Source: Staphylococcus sp. IVB6240 | GTDB taxonomy: Bacteria > Bacillota > Bacilli > Staphylococcales > Staphylococcaceae | Assembly: GCF_025558425.1 (NCBI RefSeq) | Contig: NZ_CP094718.1 | Coordinates: forward strand, 2,046,001 to 2,110,000 | Direction of reading: 5' to 3' | Length of the DNA stretch: 64,000 nt | Part shown: positions 33,083-59,440 of the stretch, piece after piece | Layout: each line of letters begins with the position of its first letter | How positions within the stretch are numbered: the first letter of the stretch is position 1 | Notes under the pieces: generated by a model | Seen by the model: only the letters and a program-made list of their open reading frames with translations | What the model was told of the DNA's origin: nothing | The model's database searches: none | Translations under genes and position numbers: made by a program

Positions 33083-34015
33083 TTATAAATTTCTCAATTT
33101 ATTAATCGATTCTTCCGAAATAAATCCCAGTTGATTTATTCTCCTTTTATTTTTACCAACAATTTTTTCGATAGCGAGAGACACTTTATAAATCTGGTAT
33201 TTGGAATTAGTGCGTCTAACAAAATGATGAATAATATAAAGTACAATTGCCAACCTATTAGAATAATTACCATCTTTAAATCGATATATATCACTTTTCC
33301 AATTATCATTGACTACAGGGGCCGTAGTCAATTTAATATCGACTATATTGGAATTATGAGCACATATATTTCTCATAAAGTTAAGGCATTTAAGCCAAGA
33401 TAATAATTCTTTGTTACTACAATTATAATAATCAGAGATTCTCTGCAAGTTTTTACGTGACATCAATGTAAGTAAATGAACAATATCTCCAAACATCAAA
33501 ACATCAACCATTAACCAAACACTTGGATAACCTTGATAATTAAGGTTCTTCTCTTCTTTCAAATCTAAGCTTCTTGAAAGTTTTATTTTAGTAAATAACT
33601 CTTTTTTAAATCTATTTTGCTGATAATTCAGATAATGTTTGCAGTATTCCTCTTTGTTACACCATTTAGAAAAATCTAAATATCCAAAGGCACCATAAGA
33701 TTCTCCAAGAACGTAAGATATTTTTGTTTTTAGAGAAACTTCTATTTTCTCTATTGCATGTAATAAACCTAGCCTTAAATTCTTATCTTGATAATAACGA
33801 GTAATAACATCGTTGAAATTCACATTTTCGTAAACTCTCATCTGTTCTTTATTCTCGTTTTCAACAACTTTAGATAAAGGATATGCAAATTCTTTCAATT
33901 TATAATAGCCTATATTTTCTAACTTTTCTATAGCTCGTGTTTCATTGTCAATAATCATGCCACGCTTCTTAAATAACTGCAACTGTTCTTTAAATGTTAA
34001 TGGTTTAGGATTCAT
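33083..34015 (-). CDS. Abi_2 (AbiD/AbiF-like) abortive-infection protein
   Basis: 310 residues. LTFKEQLQLFKKRGMIID...LENIGYYKLKEFAYPL is the N-terminal signature of the Abi_2 family (PF07751). FMRNICAHNSN contains an RX4H motif typical of HEPN ribonucleases, and a long helical core surrounds it. Members cause phage resistance by killing or arresting the infected cell. It is more A+T-rich than the neighbouring his and bet genes, suggesting transfer into the his-bet junction. GAGGTG precedes ATG 34015, directly after a terminator-like leader hairpin. Confidence 0.88.
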   Translation of the reverse strand: MNPKPLTFKEQLQLFKKRGMIIDNETRAIEKLENIGYYKLKEFAYPLSKVVENENKEQMRVYENVNFNDVITRYYQDKNLRLGLLHAIEKIEVSLKTKISYVLGESYGAFGYLDFSKWCNKEEYCKHYLNYQQNRFKKELFTKIKLSRSLDLKEEKNLNYQGYPSVWLMVDVLMFGDIVHLLTLMSRKNLQRISDYYNCSNKELLSWLKCLNFMRNICAHNSNIVDIKLTTAPVVNDNWKSDIYRFKDGNYSNRLAIVLYIIHHFVRRTNSKYQIYKVSLAIEKIVGKNKRRINQLGFISEESINKLRNL

Positions 34016-46097: not shown

Positions 46098-47039
46098 ATG
46101 AAACCTGTTTACTTTAACCATGACGGTGGCGTAGATGACTTAATCTCACTCTTCTTACTATTACATATGGAGAATGTCGAAGTGATTGGCGTTAGTGCCA
46201 TTGGGGCCGACTGCTATGTCGAGCCCGCTGAAAGTGCCTCTCGCAAAATCATCAATCGCTTCAGCCATTATCCGATTGATGTCGCAACTTCTTATGAACG
46301 TGGTAAAAACCAATTCCCAAAAGATTGGCGCATGCACGCCTTCTTTATGGATGCCTTACCAATTATCAATGAAAGATACCCTATCCAATCACAAGCACTA
46401 AAAAATCATGCTTATGAAGATATCATTCAAAAAGTACAATCATCTCAACAACCCGTTACATTGTTATTCACTGGACCATTAACTGACCTTGTAAAAGCTT
46501 TAGATGTCGCATCAGACATTGCAAACAATATTGAACGTCTTGTATGGATGGGTGGTACATTTTTAGAAAGAGGCAATGTGGAAGAACCTGAACATGACGG
46601 TACCGCTGAATGGAATGCTTTCTGGGATCCAGAAGCTGTCGCACGTGTTTTTGAAACAGATATCCCAATTGATATGGTTGCTTTGGAAAGCACTAACCAA
46701 GTGCCACTCACAACAGCCATTCGTCAGTATTGGGCTGACCAACGTGAACATACAGGTGTCGACTTTTTAGGTGTAAGTTATGCAGCAGTTCCACCATTAA
46801 CACACTTCCAAACAAACTCAACATATTTCTTATGGGATGTACTGACAACAGCTTATACCGGCAAACCAGACCTTGTCCGTCAAAAAACGGTTCATGCTTC
46901 TGTGATCACACATGGTCCTAGTCAAGGACGTACGTATTTAGACGAAGAAAACGGACGCCCACTTAATCTCGTCTATCATGTTGACCACGATGTCTTTTTC
47001 TCATACATTACTGATCTTGCTAAAAAAGCACGTGATTAA
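46098..47039 (+). CDS. Nucleoside hydrolase (IunH family)
   Basis: 313 residues. NHDGGVDDLISLF replaces the common DTDPGxDDA calcium-binding motif but keeps the key aspartates. LLFTGPLTDLVKAL and WMGGTF are family segments, and NAFWDPEAVARVF is the active-site helix. Cleaves ribonucleosides to base and ribose; specificity unknown. AAGGAG lies before ATG 46098. Confidence 0.9.
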   Translation: MKPVYFNHDGGVDDLISLFLLLHMENVEVIGVSAIGADCYVEPAESASRKIINRFSHYPIDVATSYERGKNQFPKDWRMHAFFMDALPIINERYPIQSQALKNHAYEDIIQKVQSSQQPVTLLFTGPLTDLVKALDVASDIANNIERLVWMGGTFLERGNVEEPEHDGTAEWNAFWDPEAVARVFETDIPIDMVALESTNQVPLTTAIRQYWADQREHTGVDFLGVSYAAVPPLTHFQTNSTYFLWDVLTTAYTGKPDLVRQKTVHASVITHGPSQGRTYLDEENGRPLNLVYHVDHDVFFSYITDLAKKARD

Positions 47040-47044
47040 GACAA

Positions 47045-47086
47045 AAAAATGGATTGTTGATTCTGTAATGTCAACAATCCATTTTT
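47045..47086. terminator. Terminator between nucleoside hydrolase and the alb-like island
   Basis: AAAAATGGATTGTTGA pairs with TCAACAATCCATTTTT; bidirectional. Confidence 0.9.
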
Positions 47087-47098
47087 ATTTATATAATT

Positions 47099-48521
47099 TT
47101 ATGCAATTTCCTTTTTGCATTTCCTTTTTAGTAAAACACTAATAACCCAAAATATAAGATTCTGTATGAGGAAAAATATGACCACCTCTCTCTTAACATA
47201 TATCAAAATTATAATTGGAAAAATAGTAGGCACTAATAACCTTAGAATTTTTTGATTTATTTTCTGTTTAAAGAATTTGTATAGCATGAAGTAAGAAGTG
47301 ACTATAAATACAATTGATATAGGTAAGAACTCGTAAAGCGAAATTTTTAACCTAAATTCCGATACTACACTAATAAAAATTCCATATACTAACACATTTA
47401 TCAAAAGTGTTAGTAGTATTTGTTGCTTTGTAGGAACTTTTAATCGAGGGAATATCATATCAAATCTCAATCTAATAAAGTTCACAATTGATAATATAAC
47501 AATTAGCTTAATAAGTAATAGGTCTAATTCTTCTTGAAATAACAACGTACTTGTTACCACAATACTGATTAGTAGAACCTGTGATATTATCGTCATAAAT
47601 AAAAATTTAAAAATGAAGATTCTTCTCTTTACAAATGGCATATAGCCTGCCAATCTTTGTAATTCTTTATCCGAAGAAAACAAGAGATTCAATGGACTTA
47701 TTGAAGATATAATTAATAATAACAAAAAGTACTTTATTCCAAATTCTATATTAATTTCATTCATAATTTCTATATTGTAATTTATGATATTAAGAAAGAT
47801 TAACATACCTATTATTCCAATTATATTTGGTTTTTCCGAAAAAAACTTTTTAATCTCCCATTTAAAAATTGATATTTTTCTTTTTTTAACTATTCGAACT
47901 ATCCTCTGTCCGTTCTTATTGAAGGTGATACCATTAATTAATGCAGAAGTACTTATTAAAATAAAAAACAGTATTACATTACTTGCTATTTGATAAAAAA
48001 AGATACTTAAAATTAATGTTATCAATAATAAAAGTGCCATATACTTTCTTTGATATTCATACAGTAAGATACAAATGTGTTGAGAAATAATAATCAAAAC
48101 CATAAATACTAAGACCATTAACACACTTTCAAATAAACTAATACTATCTATTAGATAAGCATATATAGGTAACACAAATAAATAAATAAGTCTTTTACCT
48201 GTTATATTAACGAATATATATATTTAATGTTGTCAAAACTTTCTTGTTTTCAATAGGTATATAACTAAAAAGTCTATATATATCACTTTTACGAAATGAA
48301 TTCCAATAGATATTAGTTAATAAAATTGAAGGTATTATGATAGCAAATCTAAAATAATTAGAGGTTAGTATATTAACACTATCTGAATATCTTCCTATTA
48401 TATAGAACTCGAAAATTAATAAAATAATAATACCGATTAAATTTCTAAAAATAATACCTTTCCTGGATTTACTTCCATAATAAGAAAAAAGTAATTTGGG
48501 ATACCCATTATTTTTTATCAT
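47099..48521 (-). pseudogene. AlbD-like ABC transporter permease, split by a frameshift
   Basis: Two frames, 48521-48207 (104 codons) and the rest to 47099, join if one base is lost or two gained in the (AT)n tract at 48213-48224; the product would be about 474 residues with 10 or more hydrophobic helices and almost no charged loops. The first frame overlaps the ATPase end by 14 bases, so they were co-translated. Position after an AlbB/AlbC pair suggests AlbD, an export or immunity permease. Whether the break is real is unknown. Confidence 0.7.
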
Positions 48522-49206
48522 ATTCAGATAAAACCTTTCTTATATCACTTTCTTCATCAAGCGTAAAATGGTGACATTGATTATTATTTATATAAATAAT
48601 ATGTTTCGTTAAATTTTTTATAATATCTAATAAGTGAGATGAAATAATTACACATGTATCTCTCTTTATCATTTCAAAAAGATCCTGAATAAATATATCT
48701 ACTGCTTCTATATCCAACCCATTTAAGGGCTCGTCAAATATTTTGAGAGGCACATCTAATAGTATTGAACAAATTAAAGTAGCTTTTTTCTGGTTTCCCA
48801 ATGAAAGATTGTTCATTTTTATATCTAAATATTTCTCAAAATTATACTTTTGAGAAATGTTTATTAACTGGTCTTTATCAAAAGATTGTCCATAAGAACT
48901 TAAAATAAAAAATATATATTGTTGACTTGTCATTTGAGAGATAATTGGAGGATTATCTGGTACGTAAAATCTTTCTAGCCTTGCTTCATAATTGGATTTC
49001 ACTATATCCAATTTTTTTATTTTAATATCACCTGAAAAAGTTGAGATAATACCACATATTGTATTTATTAAAGTCGTTTTACCCGATCCATTTTTACCCA
49101 ACAACCCATAAATTTTTCCTTGCTGTAAATTTAAATTTGCATCTTTAATTATTAAATTCTGTGGCTCGTACCAAATATTCAAATTATTTAAATGAACTAT
49201 CGTCAT
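48508..49206 (-). CDS. AlbC-like ABC transporter ATPase
   Basis: 232 residues. Walker A GLLGKNGSGKTTLIN, signature NLSLGNQKKA (unusual LSLGN in place of LSGGQ), Walker B LKIFDEPLNGLD and switch His SSHLLD. It resembles B. subtilis AlbC, which with AlbD and AlbB exports or gives immunity to subtilosin. It starts inside the AlbB-like gene (23-base overlap). Intact, unlike its neighbours. Confidence 0.85.
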   Translation of the reverse strand: MTIVHLNNLNIWYEPQNLIIKDANLNLQQGKIYGLLGKNGSGKTTLINTICGIISTFSGDIKIKKLDIVKSNYEARLERFYVPDNPPIISQMTSQQYIFFILSSYGQSFDKDQLINISQKYNFEKYLDIKMNNLSLGNQKKATLICSILLDVPLKIFDEPLNGLDIEAVDIFIQDLFEMIKRDTCVIISSHLLDIIKNLTKHIIYINNNQCHHFTLDEESDIRKVLSEYDKK

Positions 49207-49357
49207 TAGATTTATCTCTTCTAAATTTTTTCAATAGATAAAGAATACCTATTAAAATGAATATAGATGCAAATACCCACTCTTGCTTAAATCCAAATAC
49301 TATTCCTGATATTAAAAAGATAAAACCTATTATTAATGTTATAGTATTTCTACTCAT
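49184..49357 (-). CDS. AlbB-like small membrane protein
   Basis: 57 residues starting MSRNTITLIIGFIFLIS, with two hydrophobic helices (about 5-22 and 28-42) and a basic, polar tail. In the subtilosin operon a 53-residue two-helix AlbB lies at exactly this place between albA and albC and helps give immunity. GAGGG lies upstream of ATG 49357. Homology is inferred from size, topology and order. Confidence 0.65.
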   Translation of the reverse strand: MSRNTITLIIGFIFLISGIVFGFKQEWVFASIFILIGILYLLKKFRRDKSNDDSSFK

Positions 49358-49371
49358 ATCTTTCCCTCTAC

Positions 49372-50705
49372 TTATATTTTTTCTACTAGTTCCCCTAAAG
49401 TTTCTCCTTTAATCCAACCACAGTGATTCTTTCGAGAACTCTTATTAGTGTTAAGACCCTTTAGATAACACCCAGCACAGTATTCCTTAAAACTACACTC
49501 ATCACTACAAAAACTGCTTTTTTGAGGAGATTGTAATGAATACAAATGATTTACTATTTCTGAGGAAAAAACTTCTTCGTAAGATTGTTTTTTTAAGTTA
49601 CCTATTACAAATTCTTTTGGGAACAGCGCACACGGTCTAATGTTCCCATTAGGGTCCATTACTATTGAACGCCAACCTGCTCCACAATTATCGGCTTTAT
49701 TTTTATTTATTGGAACTAAAGGTATAATATCAGAATTATTTTTCACAACTTCTACTTCAAATTCAGCAAAAGATACATTACCTATTTTATTCAACTTAAG
49801 CTGATCCATTTCTTTTCCTCTACCAAAATCATCTATCCAATTGTATGAAAAAGCTGAAGCGCCTAAGTTTCTTACTAATTCGGCCATTTCGGCAATTTCC
49901 CACATATTATCTTCATAAATAGACATTCCCACTCTTACAAAAATGCCATTATCCGAAAGTTTTTTTATAGTTTTACAAGTTTGGTTAAATGTATTTTTTT
50001 GCCACGAAAATTATCATGTTTCTCAGAATTAATACTGTCCAATGAAATTCCTATTACTATCTTTTCTTTATAATTAATCAACAATTCAAGAATATCTTTC
50101 TTGAGTAATGTCCCGTTAGTGAGTATCCCGACTTTTTTAAACTTTTTAAGAGCAAATTCTAATATTTCTTTTGCATTTGGATGTACAAATACCTCGCCAC
50201 CAGTAATTTCACATGTTAACACACCATTTTCATACATCATATCTGCAATATTTTAAACTCTCCTAATGAAAGTGTATCTTGAACAAAAGGTGAGCTTTCC
50301 AAATAGCAATGTTCACACTTTAAATTACATTTATGTGTAATTTCAAAAACAGCATGCAATGGAGTAATGTAGTCTGTTGAACCACTAATATTCATTCTTC
50401 TTTTAGTTGGATAGTCAGATACATCAATAAGGCCTTTTCTATATAATTCATTAACTAAATTTGAATACCATTCTATATGCTCACTTACATCACAATTATA
50501 TTTGATGCACATACTATTTAAAATATCTAGAGCCTTTTGGGATCCATCAAAATTTGTACACGCTTCAAAGGCAGAAGAATTAAGATCTAAATATTCGAAA
50601 TCAAATATTTCATCTTCTACATTACCATTTTTTTACCTCAATTACTCCTCCATTAGGTAACTGATGTAATCGAGAATTGTCATTAAAATATATGTATTTA
50701 TCCAT
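49372..50705 (-). pseudogene. AlbA-like radical SAM/SPASM sactipeptide enzyme with three frameshifts
   Basis: Restoring the frame at three A-tracts gives about 444 residues; AlbA has 448. The N-terminus DNSRLHQLPNGGVIEV and DFEYLDLN match AlbA's PqqD-like region. THKCNLKCEHCYLESSP is the radical SAM CX3CX2C cluster. CEITGGEVFVHPNA, ISLDSINSEKHDNFRG and FSYNWIDDFGRG follow. The C-terminal SPASM part has NCGAGW, RPCALFPKEF, CSFKEYCAGCYLKGLN. AlbA makes cysteine sulfur to alpha-carbon thioethers in subtilosin. The breaks are at 50628-50634, 50251-50254 and 49994-50000. The sequence is otherwise well preserved, so recent mutation or assembly error is likely. Confidence 0.85.
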
Positions 50706-50740
50706 TTATAAATCCCCTTTTTCCATTAAAAATTCCTCCT
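50706..50740 (-). other. Six-codon minicistron with a perfect ribosome site where a precursor gene is expected
   Basis: AAGGAGG (50740-50734) stands 7 bases before ATG 50726, which opens a frame of only MEKGDL; its TAA is immediately followed by the radical SAM ATG (50705). In sbo-alb clusters the precursor sboA occupies this spot. This may be the remnant start of a deleted precursor or a coupling leader. Confidence 0.5.
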
Positions 50741-50766
50741 TAATTATTAATTTGAACTACAAATTC

Positions 50767-50772
50767 ATTTTA
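50767..50772 (-). promoter_or_regulatory. -10 box of the alb-like operon
   Basis: Minus-strand TAAAAT at 50772-50767 predicts a start near 50760. No good -35 is present, as expected for an FNR-activated promoter. Confidence 0.6.
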
Positions 50773-50793
50773 ACAATCAAAAACAAAAAATCA

Positions 50794-50809
50794 TGTAACA
50801 TATATCACA
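50794..50809. promoter_or_regulatory. FNR box between the alb-like operon and the fnr-like gene
   Basis: TGTAACATATATCACA matches TGTGA-N6-TCACA at 9 of 10 positions. Its centre (50801.5) is 41.5 bases from the predicted alb-like start, the classical class II activating position. It also covers the -35 region of the divergent regulator promoter. Confidence 0.75.
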
Positions 50810-50826
50810 AAATAAGACATAAATGT

Positions 50827-50832
50827 TATAAT
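50827..50832 (+). promoter_or_regulatory. -10 box of the fnr-like gene
   Basis: TATAAT at 50827-50832; the FNR box lies where the -35 would be, suggesting autoregulation. Confidence 0.65.
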
Positions 50833-50854
50833 TTTTTCGAGGAGGATCGAGTTA

Positions 50855-51492
50855 ATGGATAATTTTTTAATAATTAAAGATTTTATTAAGAAAAATGGAA
50901 AAAAATCAATTTACGTAAGAGACAATACTTTAAGGAAACTTTTGAAAATTATTTATATTTTGTTGATGCAGGTGTTTTATATGTACAACAAGATAGCGCT
51001 GATGGTACAACCTTAATATATAAAATTGTAAGCCCCAAAAATTTATTTCTATGCAATAACTCAAAATATTTTCGTGGGAAGTCAGACGTTACATTCTACA
51101 AACTACCTGTCAATATCATCAAAAATAATAAAGAACTTTTTAACAGATACACAGAGTTACTCACTTTTTAAAGTATAAAAAAAGATATGTTTATTCGAGA
51201 TATGCTAACTAAAGATAAATTCTGTAGCTTACTATCTATTCTAGTTAGATTATCTAATACATTTGGAGAAATGAAAAATGGTGTAGTAATAATTAGATTA
51301 AAAATTACACAAGAAGAACTTGCTCAATGTTGCGGAACAACTAGAGAAAATGTTGCAAGAATTATGAAACATTTAAAAGATAAAAATATTTTAGATACCT
51401 CTTCTCAATTCATAAAAATATATGCCATTGAGGAAATTAAAAAATTAATCCCTTGCGAAAACTGTAATAATTATATATGTAAGACTTTTTGA
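50855..51492 (+). pseudogene. Bacillus-type Fnr regulator with one frameshift and one in-frame stop
   Basis: ATG 50855 follows GGAGG. One added base in the A7 tract at 50899-50905 joins the first codons to a cyclic-nucleotide-binding-like fold (YFVDAGVLYVQQDSADGTT). A TAA at 51169-51171 then interrupts the same frame before the Crp helix-turn-helix (ITQEELAQCCGTTRENVARIMKHLK). The C-terminus CENCNNYIC is CX2CX4C, as in B. subtilis Fnr, where these cysteines hold an oxygen-labile 4Fe-4S cluster. Repaired length is about 212 residues. An ATG at 51187 could still give a DNA-binding fragment of 101 residues. Confidence 0.8.
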
Positions 51493-51515
51493 TATATTTC
51501 TCATTATTACTATTT

Positions 51516-51552
51516 AAAAACCCTAACAGGCAGTATCCTATTAGAGTTTCTT
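51516..51552. terminator. Terminator between fnr-like gene and permease operon
   Basis: AAACCCTAACAGG pairs imperfectly with CCTATTAGAGTTT. Confidence 0.65.
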
Positions 51553-51557
51553 ATAAA

Positions 51558-52259
51558 TTATAATATCCCTTTTTCCATAGATTTTAAGAATTTAAAGTAA
51601 CCTATCATCAAGAAGACAATACTCAATAATAACGAAATCAGCATTAAAATAAATATGTTATAACCGTTATATAATGTAAAAACTAAAAATGAATAAAAGT
51701 AAAGATGACTTGCATATATACCCATAACACCCACAAAGAAGTTACCGATCGTTAACAATAAGCTCATCACAGCAGGTAGAACAAATCCTTGAAATAGATG
51801 ATTCAGCATATAAACAAAACTTACAACTGGTAATAACACGACAACCCACACAAACAGCAGATACAAGCTATCTAATTCCACATTTTGCGTGAATATAAAA
51901 TACCCCATAATATACGTTACATAAGCAAATAACAACATTAATATGCCCACAAAAACATAAAATACAAAATGAATCATGTAATAAGATCTAAGACTTTTAA
52001 AATAGATGAGTGTATTTTGAAATGCATGATGTCTTCTTTCAATACGAAACATCAATCCAATAATTAAGGTGATCGTCAACGGAAAAACGATTTCTAAAAA
52101 TATTTGTAGTGCTGTAATACGAAAGATTTGTGCATCGGTCTGTTTGGCAAACAATCCAAGACATGAAAACATCGCAACCGTCAGAATTGGGAAAACAATC
52201 ATAATTGGCATAATGGAAGTATGTTTCATTTTTAAAAATTGGCTTTTCAGAAATGACAT
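51558..52259 (-). CDS. Lantibiotic-protection ABC transporter permease (second)
   Basis: 233 residues with six hydrophobic helices, beginning MSFLKSQFLKMKHTSIM, typical of the EpiE/EpiG- and NisE/NisG-type permeases that expel lantibiotics from the membrane. ATG 52259 lies 4 bases after the stop of the preceding permease, with AAAGGA upstream. Last gene of the operon. Confidence 0.8.
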   Translation of the reverse strand: MSFLKSQFLKMKHTSIMPIMIVFPILTVAMFSCLGLFAKQTDAQIFRITALQIFLEIVFPLTITLIIGLMFRIERRHHAFQNTLIYFKSLRSYYMIHFVFYVFVGILMLLFAYVTYIMGYFIFTQNVELDSLYLLFVWVVVLLPVVSFVYMLNHLFQGFVLPAVMSLLLTIGNFFVGVMGIYASHLYFYSFLVFTLYNGYNIFILMLISLLLSIVFLMIGYFKFLKSMEKGIL

Positions 52260-52263
52260 AATT

Positions 52264-52992
52264 CTAAAATTCCTTTCGTTTAATATAAACACTCGAAATC
52301 ATGAGTACGAATACAAAAATAAAAATACTATAGCCACTATATACAAAAAATGATGTGTCAAAGTACATCAGTTGATCATGATCTAGTATATGTTTTGCGT
52401 TGATGATATGTTCGGGGATTTTAAATGGCATTGTATCTGATGACATCAGTAAACTCAATAGTGTAAATAAGATACCAAGTCCCATGACATAAACCCTATT
52501 TTCAATGATCAGTGCAATCAAAAACTGGATAGCTTGCATGGCCAATGTACCGATAAAGAATGCCATCATGATGTAAAGGAGTGGTATCAATTGTGGTAAT
52601 TCATTCGTTACAAAAATGCTTGTGATCGTATGTAGCAACATAAAGATGAGTGTTGTTAAGCACATTAAAATGAATAGTACCATCCATTTTGCAAAGATAA
52701 TCGAATTTTTACTCTTCTGACTGACAAGCAGCACAGACCACATATTATTTTCGTATTCTGTCGATATGATTTTTGCACTAAAAATACCATATAATAAATA
52801 AAATGCTGGCGTGAACCATGCAATGGCATAAACTAAATAGTGTAAAGATGAGCCCTCAATATTTGAAAAATGCATATTATACATATATAAGCCGAATGCT
52901 AAAATTTCTGAGATCATAACAGTCATCACCATCGCCATCAAAAAGTAAACTTTTGATAACTTAAATAGTTCTGCTTTCATTAAATTATTCAT
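52264..52992 (-). CDS. Lantibiotic-protection ABC transporter permease (first)
   Basis: 242 residues, MNNLMKAELFKLSKVYF..., six helices, conserved KIISTEYENNMWSVLLVS of the ABC-2/lantibiotic immunity permease family. The ATG overlaps the ATPase end by 8 bases, so translation is coupled. It forms a heteromeric exporter with the second permease and the ATPase. Confidence 0.82.
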   Translation of the reverse strand: MNNLMKAELFKLSKVYFLMAMVMTVMISEILAFGLYMYNMHFSNIEGSSLHYLVYAIAWFTPAFYLLYGIFSAKIISTEYENNMWSVLLVSQKSKNSIIFAKWMVLFILMCLTTLIFMLLHTITSIFVTNELPQLIPLLYIMMAFFIGTLAMQAIQFLIALIIENRVYVMGLGILFTLLSLLMSSDTMPFKIPEHIINAKHILDHDQLMYFDTSFFVYSGYSIFIFVFVLMISSVYIKRKEF

Positions 52993-53902
52993 CAGCAAAA
53001 TCTCTTTCATCGGCATGATTAGTTAATTTCAAAAAGATATCTTCTAAAGAGGACTTTTCATGATAAATTTCATATACATTAATATCATGATTCACGAGTG
53101 TTTTGTTGATTTTAGGAATATCATCACGATGTGCTTTCACAGTTAGACGTTGATCTTCTACCTCAGTATCGATGTCTTCTAATAATGATTGTGCTTTGGC
53201 ATTATCATCTGTCACGAAATAAATATAATCATGTTTATATTTTTCTAATAATGTACGCATATCACCTTGGTATAATAACTGCCCTTTATTAATCACGCAT
53301 ACATAGCGACACATCTGTTCAATTTCAAATAGATTATGACTCGAAACGATAATACTAATTCCACGTTCTTCTACAAGTTTTATTAATAATTCTCTCATCT
53401 TTTTAATGCCACTTGGATCCAAGCCATTCGTTGGTTCATCCAATATAATCAACTTCGGGTTATTCATTAGTGCAATGGCAATACCTAATCGTTGCTTCAT
53501 ACCAAGCGAATAATCTTTAACCTTTTTATGTGCAGCATGTGTCATTTCAACGGTTTCTAAAACTTCTTCAATCGCTTTTTCACTATTATGATGAATATAT
53601 TGCATAATTTTTAAGTTTTCATACCCTGTTAAATGATCATAAAAAGATGGGGAGTCTACAAGTGCACCCACTTGATTTAAAATTTCTTGTTTATAGTCTT
53701 CAAGTGGCATATCAAATATTTGAACGTGTCCTTCTGTTGGTTTGGCTAATCCCAACAACATTCTAATTGTCGTTGTCTTCCCTGAACCATTTGGTCCTAA
53801 AAAGCCACATATCTTCCCTTCCGGAATATGAATATTCAAACCTTGAACTGCTTGAAAATCTCCAAATCTCTTACTCACATTTTGTGTTTCAACTACATTC
53901 AA
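52985..53902 (-). CDS. Lantibiotic-protection / bacitracin-type ABC ATPase
   Basis: 305 residues. Walker A GFLGPNGSGKTTTIRM, Q-loop region ALVDSPSFYDHLTGYENL, signature DYSLGMKQRLGIA, Walker B LIILDEPTNGLDPSG, SSHNLFEIEQMC. The C-terminal ~80-residue extension is as in BcrA and EpiF/NisF proteins. Together with two permeases it likely protects from a membrane-active peptide. More GC-rich than the alb-like genes next to it, so probably of separate origin. Confidence 0.88.
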   Translation of the reverse strand: MNVVETQNVSKRFGDFQAVQGLNIHIPEGKICGFLGPNGSGKTTTIRMLLGLAKPTEGHVQIFDMPLEDYKQEILNQVGALVDSPSFYDHLTGYENLKIMQYIHHNSEKAIEEVLETVEMTHAAHKKVKDYSLGMKQRLGIAIALMNNPKLIILDEPTNGLDPSGIKKMRELLIKLVEERGISIIVSSHNLFEIEQMCRYVCVINKGQLLYQGDMRTLLEKYKHDYIYFVTDDNAKAQSLLEDIDTEVEDQRLTVKAHRDDIPKINKTLVNHDINVYEIYHEKSSLEDIFLKLTNHADERDFADE

Positions 53903-53945
53903 TATACTTCCTCCTCAGTCATTAACAATAATCATATGCCATTAA

Positions 53946-54188
53946 TTAATGTTTGGATTGGAATAATCTAAGTGTGATTAAAGCGAATCCAATCGTAATA
54001 ATCGTATAAATAACTGCTGAAACAATGATGACTGTACTATTTGGATTTGTGAGCTCTATTGGTAGTGGCGCATAGCTTAAAATTAAGTGATTGTCCACAT
54101 GCGCGAGTGCAACAAACATATTGATCATACTCCATGCGGTAATTAACGTTATAATCCCTAAAATAACTCCTAAAACTTTTCTACCCAT
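53946..54188 (-). CDS. Small membrane protein at the head of the immunity operon
   Basis: 80 residues with two hydrophobic segments (VLGVILGIITLITAWSMINM and STVIIVSAVIYTIITIGFAL). AAAGGAG lies 9 bases before ATG 54188. I do not recognise the family. It is 43 bases upstream of the ATPase gene, so likely a co-transcribed accessory subunit. Confidence 0.65.
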   Translation of the reverse strand: MGRKVLGVILGIITLITAWSMINMFVALAHVDNHLILSYAPLPIELTNPNSTVIIVSAVIYTIITIGFALITLRLFQSKH

Positions 54189-54330
54189 TTGCTTCATCTC
54201 CTTTAAATCGATATACATATGAATAATGTTTTCATCATCTGTATACCCTTTTTCATTTTTTTATTCACATTTTAGACATATTCGTTAATTGAAATACTAA
54301 AATACCTATTTAGCACATAAAATTACACAC

Positions 54331-58231: not shown

Positions 58232-59440
58232 TCAGTGCGGTGACATTCGATAATCGTATTCTTTATTGTTAATAACTAAGTGATGAATAGTTTTTAACAG
58301 CTTGTTCACACAAGCAATAACTGCAGTCTTATGGCCTTTTCCATAAGGCTGTTCTTTTAATTTATAATAGTAATCAACAATGTGGTTGGCATATAGTCTT
58401 TGTACTTTCAACATGTTTTGTACAATGATGTAAAATAATGACCTTGCACGTTTATTTCCTCGCTTATTTATTTTGTCTTTGTAATGTGTTTTTCCTGATT
58501 GATATCTTTTTATATCAATACCAATATAAGCATTCAGCTGTTTATGAGAAGTGAAAGCACGTATATCACCTAGTTCTCCAATTACCATAGCTGCAGTTAA
58601 CTCTCCAATACCTGGAATAGATGTTAATATTTTAAATTCATCAAGTGTTTGAGCTAAGTCAATAAGTTGAGTTTGAATGGCTAATTGTCTTTCCATTGAA
58701 TTAAGTAAATCATCAATTGTGTAGATGAGTTTATCTACGAAGAATGAATCAGCGGGTACTGATGGATAACTTTCATTCGTATAAGAAACTAACTTCTCCA
58801 CATATGAATTTACCTTTTTGTCTGACAATCGTTTATTAGTACTATTAGCGATTAGCTCTTTCAATTTTGATACATTATTAACATCTACATAATCTGGATG
58901 TGGAAATAGCTTCGCAACTCTCAACGCGATTTTAGAGTATCTGTCTTTAAATAAAATTTGTAGTTCTGGAAAGGTCATATCTAATAACTGAATCAATGTA
59001 CTTTTTAAGTATGTCATTTGATTAGAAAGTTCTTCATAATATCTTGTCACTTCTCTTATTTTGATGTGAATATCTTTTATCATATTTTGAGATGGTTGCT
59101 TATTATAATGCTTCGCAAGATTTGCCAACTTATGAGCATCTGATTTATCTGTTTTCCATGTTCTAAGTGTATTTGTCATTAACTTAGACTCTAACGGATT
59201 CACTATACTGTAAGGGATGTAATTTTCATTACAGAATCTTTCTAGCGGTTTGGAATATATACCTGTTGATTCAAGAAGGATATAAATCCCTGCATATTGT
59301 TTTACATAATTCAATAGATTTTCAAAGCCGCTTTTATTATGAATTAATTCAAACTCGTCTATAAAAGTTTCGTTTGAATAATGTGCAATAAAGCTTTTCC
59401 CTTTCCCTACATCGATACCAAAATATTCGATATAAATCAC
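58232..59440 (-). mobile_element. IS110-family transposase
   Basis: 402 residues. N-terminal DEDD domain: YFGIDVGKGKSF, LLESTGIYSKPLERF, KTDKSDAHKLANLAKHY. C-terminal serine-type domain: LTSIPGIGELTAAMVIGELGD, YIGIDIKRYQSGK, NKRGNKRARSLFYIIVQNM. These DNA-guided recombinases use a bridge RNA encoded in a non-coding end. Intact and probably active. The start is uncertain: the GTG at 59440 directly abuts AGGAG. Confidence 0.92.

What the first reader, a model, noticed from the sequence alone, without database searches (positions are those of the whole stretch)
47099..51492. Subtilosin-type (sbo-alb-like) sactipeptide cluster in a staphylococcal island
An AlbA-type radical SAM/SPASM enzyme, a 57-residue two-helix protein, an ABC ATPase and a multi-helix permease lie in the albA-albB-albC-albD order, next to a divergent Bacillus-type fnr gene. 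In B. subtilis the sbo-alb operon also lies near fnr and is Fnr-dependent. Motifs of the enzyme match AlbA along its whole length. Only one sactibiotic (hyicin 4244 of S. hyicus) comes to mind for staphylococci. The island is A+T-richer than its flanks. albE, albF and albG counterparts are absent.
Basis: partly seen in the sequence, partly recalled or inferred. Interest (0 to 1): 0.9.

Follow-up and report, generated by a model that had tools for sequence, protein, structure and literature searches.

The report
Decayed subtilosin-type bacteriocin gene cassette
This stretch of a camel-associated Staphylococcus genome looks like the broken remains of a gene cassette that in related species should make a subtilosin-like antibacterial peptide; it has lost the peptide gene, and its relatives suggest how such cassettes are switched, moved and worn down.

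Summary
The genes are real: albA-albB-albC-albD order beside a divergent Crp/Fnr gene, and three AlbA pieces match the subtilosin maturase model best. It is not a working cluster. AlbA lies in four pieces, fnr has a frame change and a stop, albD a frame change. The precursor gene sbo is deleted and not found elsewhere in the genome. Another deletion removed albE and albF and fused albD to the end of albG. Only albB and albC read through.

The insert is 47,085-51,557; a close relative lacks it. The closest complete cluster is in S. felis: fnr|sbo-albABCDEFG. The species is most likely S. dromedarii. Staphylococcal sbo-alb clusters, a decayed one included, are in print.

Not met in the papers I searched: the linked Crp/Fnr gene with a palindrome at the promoter, also at loci that keep albB/albG without albA, and long direct repeats of the neighbouring gene's 3' end around the S. 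felis and S. microti copies.

The parts
47085..51557 (.). whole inserted unit, 26.1% G+C
   Evidence: G074 (L090) pairs 12,443 with window 47,084 and 12,450 with 51,558; composition
47099..48223 (-). albD-albG fusion frame (374 codons): AlbD residues 101-369, then AlbG residues 92-202
   Evidence: tblastn of S. felis proteins; alignment
48207..48521 (-). first piece of albD (AlbD residues 1-103), in another frame than the rest
48508..49206 (-). albC, ABC ATPase, 232 aa, open; 75% to S. felis
49184..49357 (-). albB, 57-aa membrane protein, open
   Evidence: alignment with six relatives; survey
49372..50705 (-). albA, radical SAM/SPASM subtilosin maturase, broken into four pieces in three frames
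50703..50726 (-). scar of the sbo deletion: start region of sbo runs into the 5' end of albA
   Evidence: alignment with S. felis
50794..50809 (.). palindrome-like site TGTGATATATGTTACA between fnr and albA; perfect palindrome in S. felis and S. microti
50855..51492 (+). Crp/Fnr-type regulator gene, broken by one frame change and one in-frame stop; C-terminal C-x2-C-x4-C
46098..47039 (+). left flank: nucleoside hydrolase (IunH), not part of the insert
51558..53902 (-). right flank: LanFEG-type lantibiotic-immunity ABC transporter, ancestral at this locus, not part of the insert

Best explanation
A horizontally acquired sbo-alb cassette of the S. felis/S. pseudintermedius type that has decayed. 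Shown by sequence: in the complete relative the order is fnr (divergent), sbo, albA, B, C, D, E, F, G, with a palindrome between fnr and sbo; in the window sbo is deleted, albA, fnr and albD are broken, albE and albF are deleted with an albD-albG fusion, and albB and albC remain open. Inferred from the named families: in the complete form AlbA would put thioether bonds into the Sbo precursor, AlbE/AlbF would process it, AlbB/C/D would serve export or self-immunity, and the linked Crp/Fnr protein would tie transcription to low oxygen through the palindrome. Most likely working of the window copy: no bacteriocin is made; at most AlbB and AlbC persist, and the breaks are recent compared with the split from S. 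felis.
For: AlbA model matches; S. felis cluster and gene-by-gene matches; sbo scar; no sbo in the genome at E <= 1, strong sbo in 4 of 84 genus genomes, the same four with an unbroken AlbA; clean insertion against G074; flanking genes unbroken in comparison with G071 and G074; AlbC truncated in another strain, IVB6246; dN/dS 0.089 for the albA pieces, so constraint held for most of the divergence.
Against: No reads were available, so single-base breaks could in part be assembly errors. Nothing tested shows that the S. felis cluster makes a peptide. The palindrome and the low-oxygen switch rest on sequence alone.
Confidence: 0.88

Rival explanations
1. The frame breaks are sequencing errors in A/T runs and the cluster is otherwise alive.
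For: Frame changes are common errors in some long-read assemblies (recalled); the albA pieces still show strong constraint.
Against: Two large deletions and one in-frame stop cannot be such errors; compared flanking genes are unbroken; among 60 AlbA relatives the best weighted identity to the window pieces is 83.3%, so no unbroken copy from this species was seen. Without sbo, albE and albF it would not make the peptide anyway.
Confidence: 0.06
2. A streamlined immunity-only locus: production genes were discarded and albB-albC are kept to survive other strains' subtilosin-like peptides.
For: albB and albC are the only open genes; AlbB, AlbC, AlbD are described as immunity genes in B. subtilis (PMC12094015 passage); other species keep albB and albG without albA, and lone albB copies look constrained.
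Against: In the window albD and fnr are broken; dN/dS does not set albB or albC (0.147, 0.118) apart from albA (0.089); AlbC is truncated in strain IVB6246; by my arithmetic six small breaks miss these two genes by chance about one time in four or five.
Confidence: 0.2
3. A different radical-SAM peptide system whose precursor is not Sbo-like.
For: No sbo is present; other staphylococcal radical SAM loci with a neighbouring Crp/Fnr gene exist (L077, L078).
Against: AlbA is the best NCBIfam model for all three pieces scanned, and the deletion scar lies where sbo lies in S. felis.
Confidence: 0.02

Closest known systems
S. felis sbo-alb cluster (L045, G030; AlbA 449 of 450 identical to the S. felis protein P0001)
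   Same: Divergent Crp/Fnr gene, palindrome, albA-albB-albC-albD order; AlbA pieces 83.3% identical, AlbC 75%
   Different: S. felis has sbo, albE, albF, albG and unbroken frames, lies behind betA and is flanked by 161-nt repeats
S. pseudintermedius sbo-alb cluster (PMC12300986, PMC12094015)
   Same: AlbA pieces 79.1%, AlbC 73%, a Crp/Fnr relative in the species
   Different: Carries sboA and albE/albF in the papers' accounts; I had no DNA of it, so linkage of its Crp/Fnr gene was not tested
Hyicin-type clusters (S. agnetis, S. caprae, G022, S. delphini)
   Same: sbo, albA, albB, albC families; palindrome TGTGAC-N4-GTCACA upstream of sbo
   Different: AlbA pieces 67% (S. delphini), AlbC 40%; Crp/Fnr gene, where seen (G022), lies at the far end
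S. chromogenes 4S77 degenerate sboA-albB locus (PMC12724294, passages)
   Same: A decayed subtilosin-type locus in a staphylococcus
   Different: Keeps sboA and albB and lacks albA; the window lacks sbo and keeps a broken albA
B. subtilis sbo-albABCDEFG
   Same: Same gene families and order
   Different: AlbA pieces about 56% to Bacillus AlbA; direct control there is by ResD (PMC3097244 passage); a divergent fnr that shares the promoter is not known to me there (recalled)

Membership tests
Subtilosin maturase AlbA | Best match to NF012164 along the protein | tested here: met
   Three pieces cover profile 29-148, 150-240, 232-441; piece scores stay under the curated cut-off of 850, which no staphylococcal AlbA reached either
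Subtilosin maturase AlbA | One continuous open frame | tested here: not met
   Four pieces in three frames
sbo-alb sactipeptide cluster | Precursor gene sbo | tested here: not met
   Deleted, and no match in the genome at E <= 1
sbo-alb sactipeptide cluster | albA-albB-albC-albD order | tested here: met
sbo-alb sactipeptide cluster | albE, albF, albG | tested here: not met
   S. felis albE and albF give no window match at E <= 0.01; only the end of albG remains, as a fusion
sbo-alb sactipeptide cluster | Makes a thioether-bridged peptide | not testable with these tools
   Needs chemistry
Fnr (Bacillus type) | C-terminal C-x2-C-x4-C as in Bacillus Fnr (motif recalled) | tested here: met
   In eight of nine aligned rows, the ninth being an N-terminal piece
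Fnr (Bacillus type) | Clear sequence relation to Bacillus Fnr and iron-sulphur oxygen sensing | tested here: inconclusive
   The protein search returned four proteins, the named ones staphylococcal; best PDB matches are NtcA and CRP; Fe-S cluster not testable
Lone AlbB as immunity protein | Protects against a subtilosin-like peptide | not tested
   Only presence and constraint were examined

The most novel reading that the evidence does not exclude
In staphylococci the sbo-alb locus is a mobile cassette with its own oxygen-sensing Crp/Fnr switch, which settles beside gene ends with duplication of the neighbouring gene's 3' end and terminator. After the producer genes decay, small membrane proteins (AlbB, often AlbG) stay behind under selection as orphan protection genes, some still under the same palindrome. 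The S. dromedarii copy is caught early in that decay.
Probability: 0.35. Interest if true: 0.6.

Novelty: new member of a known kind. Interest (0 to 1): 0.4.

Why it matters
On its own this is one more decayed bacteriocin locus. Set beside its relatives it gives a series (complete, broken, almost gone, lone albB) in one genus, which makes two questions testable: whether AlbB-like proteins are kept as stand-alone protection, and whether staphylococcal sactipeptides are switched on by low oxygen through a linked Crp/Fnr protein.

Tried and rejected
Flanking direct repeats at the window site: not found; the one 40-nt, 80% repeat that the tool gave (46,793 and 48,114) does not lie at the ends. Close AlbA in plasmids (E <= 1e-40: 0 records) and phages (E <= 1e-30: one record, 26.5% identity). 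The G026 radical SAM hit (L047) is 38% to AlbA over 89 residues and was dropped. The LanFEG-type transporter was first thought part of the insert and was dropped because G074, G055, G002 and G044 have it at the same locus. The 66-aa ORF beside albG in G023 (L079) is not counted as AlbB; G023 has no hit in the AlbB survey. Constraint tests do not single out albB or albC in the window.

Rows dropped before counting: of 19 AlbB places four were not classified: G052 (in-frame TGA), G003 (weak), and G001:C2 and G036, whose neighbourhoods contain withheld stretches. One search recovered five of six lone AlbB genes (L126 was missed). The sbo survey lists 30 of 84 genomes at E <= 1; only four are strong, the others start at E 0.047. 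The chance estimate for the breaks, the Bacillus Fnr motif and the roles of AlbE/AlbF are my arithmetic or recall.
Full report
What is there. The insert lies at 47,085-51,557 and is 26.1% G+C against 39.1% in the 10 kb to the left and 36.1% in 54.2-64 kb. On the minus strand it holds four pieces of an AlbA-type radical SAM/SPASM protein, a 57-aa membrane protein, an ABC ATPase and two pieces of a permease; a Crp/Fnr-type gene runs the other way. Three AlbA pieces match NF012164 (subtilosin maturase AlbA) over profile 29-148, 150-240 and 232-441 with E 1e-35, 1.4e-40 and 2.7e-80, well ahead of the next model for each.

What is broken. Against the complete S. felis proteins, AlbA falls into four pieces in three frames, the Crp/Fnr gene has one frame change and one in-frame stop, and albD one frame change. 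The frame 47,099-48,223 is a fusion: AlbD residues 101-369, then AlbG residues 92-202. So a deletion took the end of albD, albE, albF and the start of albG. Another took sbo: the ribosome-binding site and start of sbo now run into the 5' end of albA. A search with an S. caprae Sbo precursor found nothing in this genome at E <= 1 and strong matches in 4 of 84 genomes of the genus, the same four that have an unbroken AlbA. albB and albC are open.

Artefact or decay. The neighbouring genes compared with G071 and G074 match over nearly their whole length unless cut by the end of the fetched stretch; one break is a stop rather than a frame change, and two losses are deletions. Among 60 AlbA relatives the best weighted identity to the window pieces is 83.3%, so I saw no unbroken copy from this species. 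dN/dS against S. felis is 0.089 for the albA pieces, 0.147 albB, 0.118 albC, 0.257 and 0.337 for the two albD parts, 0.123 for the albG part (dS 2.98, saturated) and 0.242 for the fnr pieces; betA and betB give 0.041 and 0.058 (Nei-Gojobori, dS near or above 1, so rough). The breaks are therefore recent against the split from S. felis, and albB and albC are not set apart.

Species. The window AlbC is 100% identical to a protein on a 2,261,574-base contig and, over its first 47%, to a 129-aa protein named as from Staphylococcus sp. IVB6246 on a 2,181,984-base contig. These lengths are those of strains IVB6238 and IVB6246 of S. dromedarii, a coagulase-negative species from dromedaries in Kenya (PMC13322412, passages). 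This genome has 2,195,277 bases; the paper prints 2,192,277 for the type strain, so the strain is not settled. The short AlbC in IVB6246 suggests that decay differs between strains.

Insertion site. In G074, IunH and the LanG-like gene are adjacent: window 47,084 pairs with L090 12,443 and 51,558 with 12,450, at 84.9% identity. That fits S. muscae, for which the paper gives ANI 84.7-84.8; this naming is inference. The LanFEG-type transporter to the right is at the same locus in G074, G055, G002 and G044, so it is not part of the insert. In G071 IunH and the next gene (SLC) are adjacent without transporter or insert. In S. felis the cassette lies behind betA. In G044, which is S. microti (its Crp/Fnr protein is identical, 223 of 223, to one so named), the remnant lies between a GlpQ-type gene and a glutamate dehydrogenase gene.

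Repeats at two other sites. In S. felis (L045) 161-nt direct repeats with 2 mismatches, made of the end of betA and its terminator, flank the cassette at a spacing of 7,798 bases. In S. microti (L048) 127-nt repeats with 8 mismatches, made of the end of the glpQ-type gene and its terminator, flank the remnant at 2,211 bases. G022 (L046), G073 (L080) and G023 (L079) showed no direct repeat of 28 nt or more, and the window none at its ends; eight further albB loci showed none or only short imperfect ones of 23-30 nt. Recombination with a circle that carries the gene end is one explanation; I have no test of it.

Regulator and palindrome. In S. felis and S. microti the Crp/Fnr gene stands divergently to the cassette with TGTAACATATGTTACA between them; the window has TGTGATATATGTTACA. 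S. agnetis, S. caprae and G022 have TGTGAC-N4-GTCACA upstream of sbo, and G073 and G023 have the same form beside albB or albG. The pattern TGTRACNNNNGTYACA occurs at 0-4 places per genome in the ten genomes searched, 17 in all; seven of the 17 are one in each of the seven genomes that carry an alb locus other than the window, and lie at that locus. The other ten are no more than the reversed control gives (11 in all, 0-2 per genome), so the pattern is not enriched elsewhere. The window genome, G074 and G071 have none. With a looser pattern G078 has a site close upstream of albB and G040 one about 460 bases away; the lone-albB loci show none. Crp/Fnr relatives occur in 9 of 84 genomes at E <= 1e-8: six in the same neighbourhood as a radical SAM gene or its remains (G000, G030, G044, G022, G009, G041), two beside albG-like genes without albA (G073, G023), and G054 with a broken copy and no alb gene found by the three surveys. 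The C-x2-C-x4-C end is in eight of nine aligned rows, the ninth being an N-terminal piece.

Remnants elsewhere. AlbG relatives occur in 8 of 84 genomes; the G022 copy contains stops, so that cluster too has begun to break. AlbB relatives occur in 17 of 84 genomes, at 19 places: six beside AlbA or its remains, three beside AlbG without AlbA (G073, G040, G078), six alone in the argH-glpQ-gdh interval (G055, G002, G019, G069, G022, G037), four not classified. Lone copies in close pairs have pN/pS 0.14-0.24, in distant pairs 0.37-0.50. S. microti keeps fnr, albB and albG and a 71-aa rest of albA.

What is in print. Searches of an open-licence library found staphylococcal sbo-alb clusters in S. pseudintermedius, with S. 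felis, S. delphini, S. epidermidis, S. capitis, S. agnetis and S. caprae named (PMC12300986: abstract, parts 1-2 of 4 and passages; PMC12094015: passages), and a degenerate sboA-albB locus in S. chromogenes (PMC12724294: passages). 'fnr' has no occurrence in the main text of either S. pseudintermedius paper. The 2000 mutational study of immunity is not held; I rely on its citation in PMC12094015. PMC3097244 was seen in passages.

Verdict. A decayed member of a known kind. The more interesting part lies in the comparison: the linked Crp/Fnr gene with its palindrome, the gene-end repeats, and the recurring retention of albB and albG.

Noticed in passing
window genome G000: Length 2,195,277 while the S. 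dromedarii paper prints 2,192,277 for the type strain: a misprint there or another strain.
   Followed up: no
window 51558-54218: LanFEG-type lantibiotic-immunity ABC transporter plus a 90-aa membrane protein, no lantibiotic biosynthesis gene noticed next to it; ancestral at this locus in several relatives.
   Followed up: partly
window 33083-34015: Abi_2-family gene (PF07751) in a 29% G+C stretch directly downstream of betA, the place where S. felis carries its sbo-alb cassette.
   Followed up: partly
L077 and L078 (G009, G041): Two similar clusters of a radical SAM gene, an ABC ATPase and permease, two further membrane proteins and a Crp/Fnr gene; only distantly AlbA-like (58-61 bits); possibly another peptide system.
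   Followed up: partly
L045 9669-9829 and 17467-17627; L048 7272-7398 and 9483-9609: Long direct repeats of the neighbouring gene's 3' end and terminator around the S. felis and S. microti cassettes.
   Followed up: partly
window 58232-59440: IS110-like transposase gene (name from my reading of the sequence, no call), between the ApbA-like and budC-like genes.
   Followed up: no
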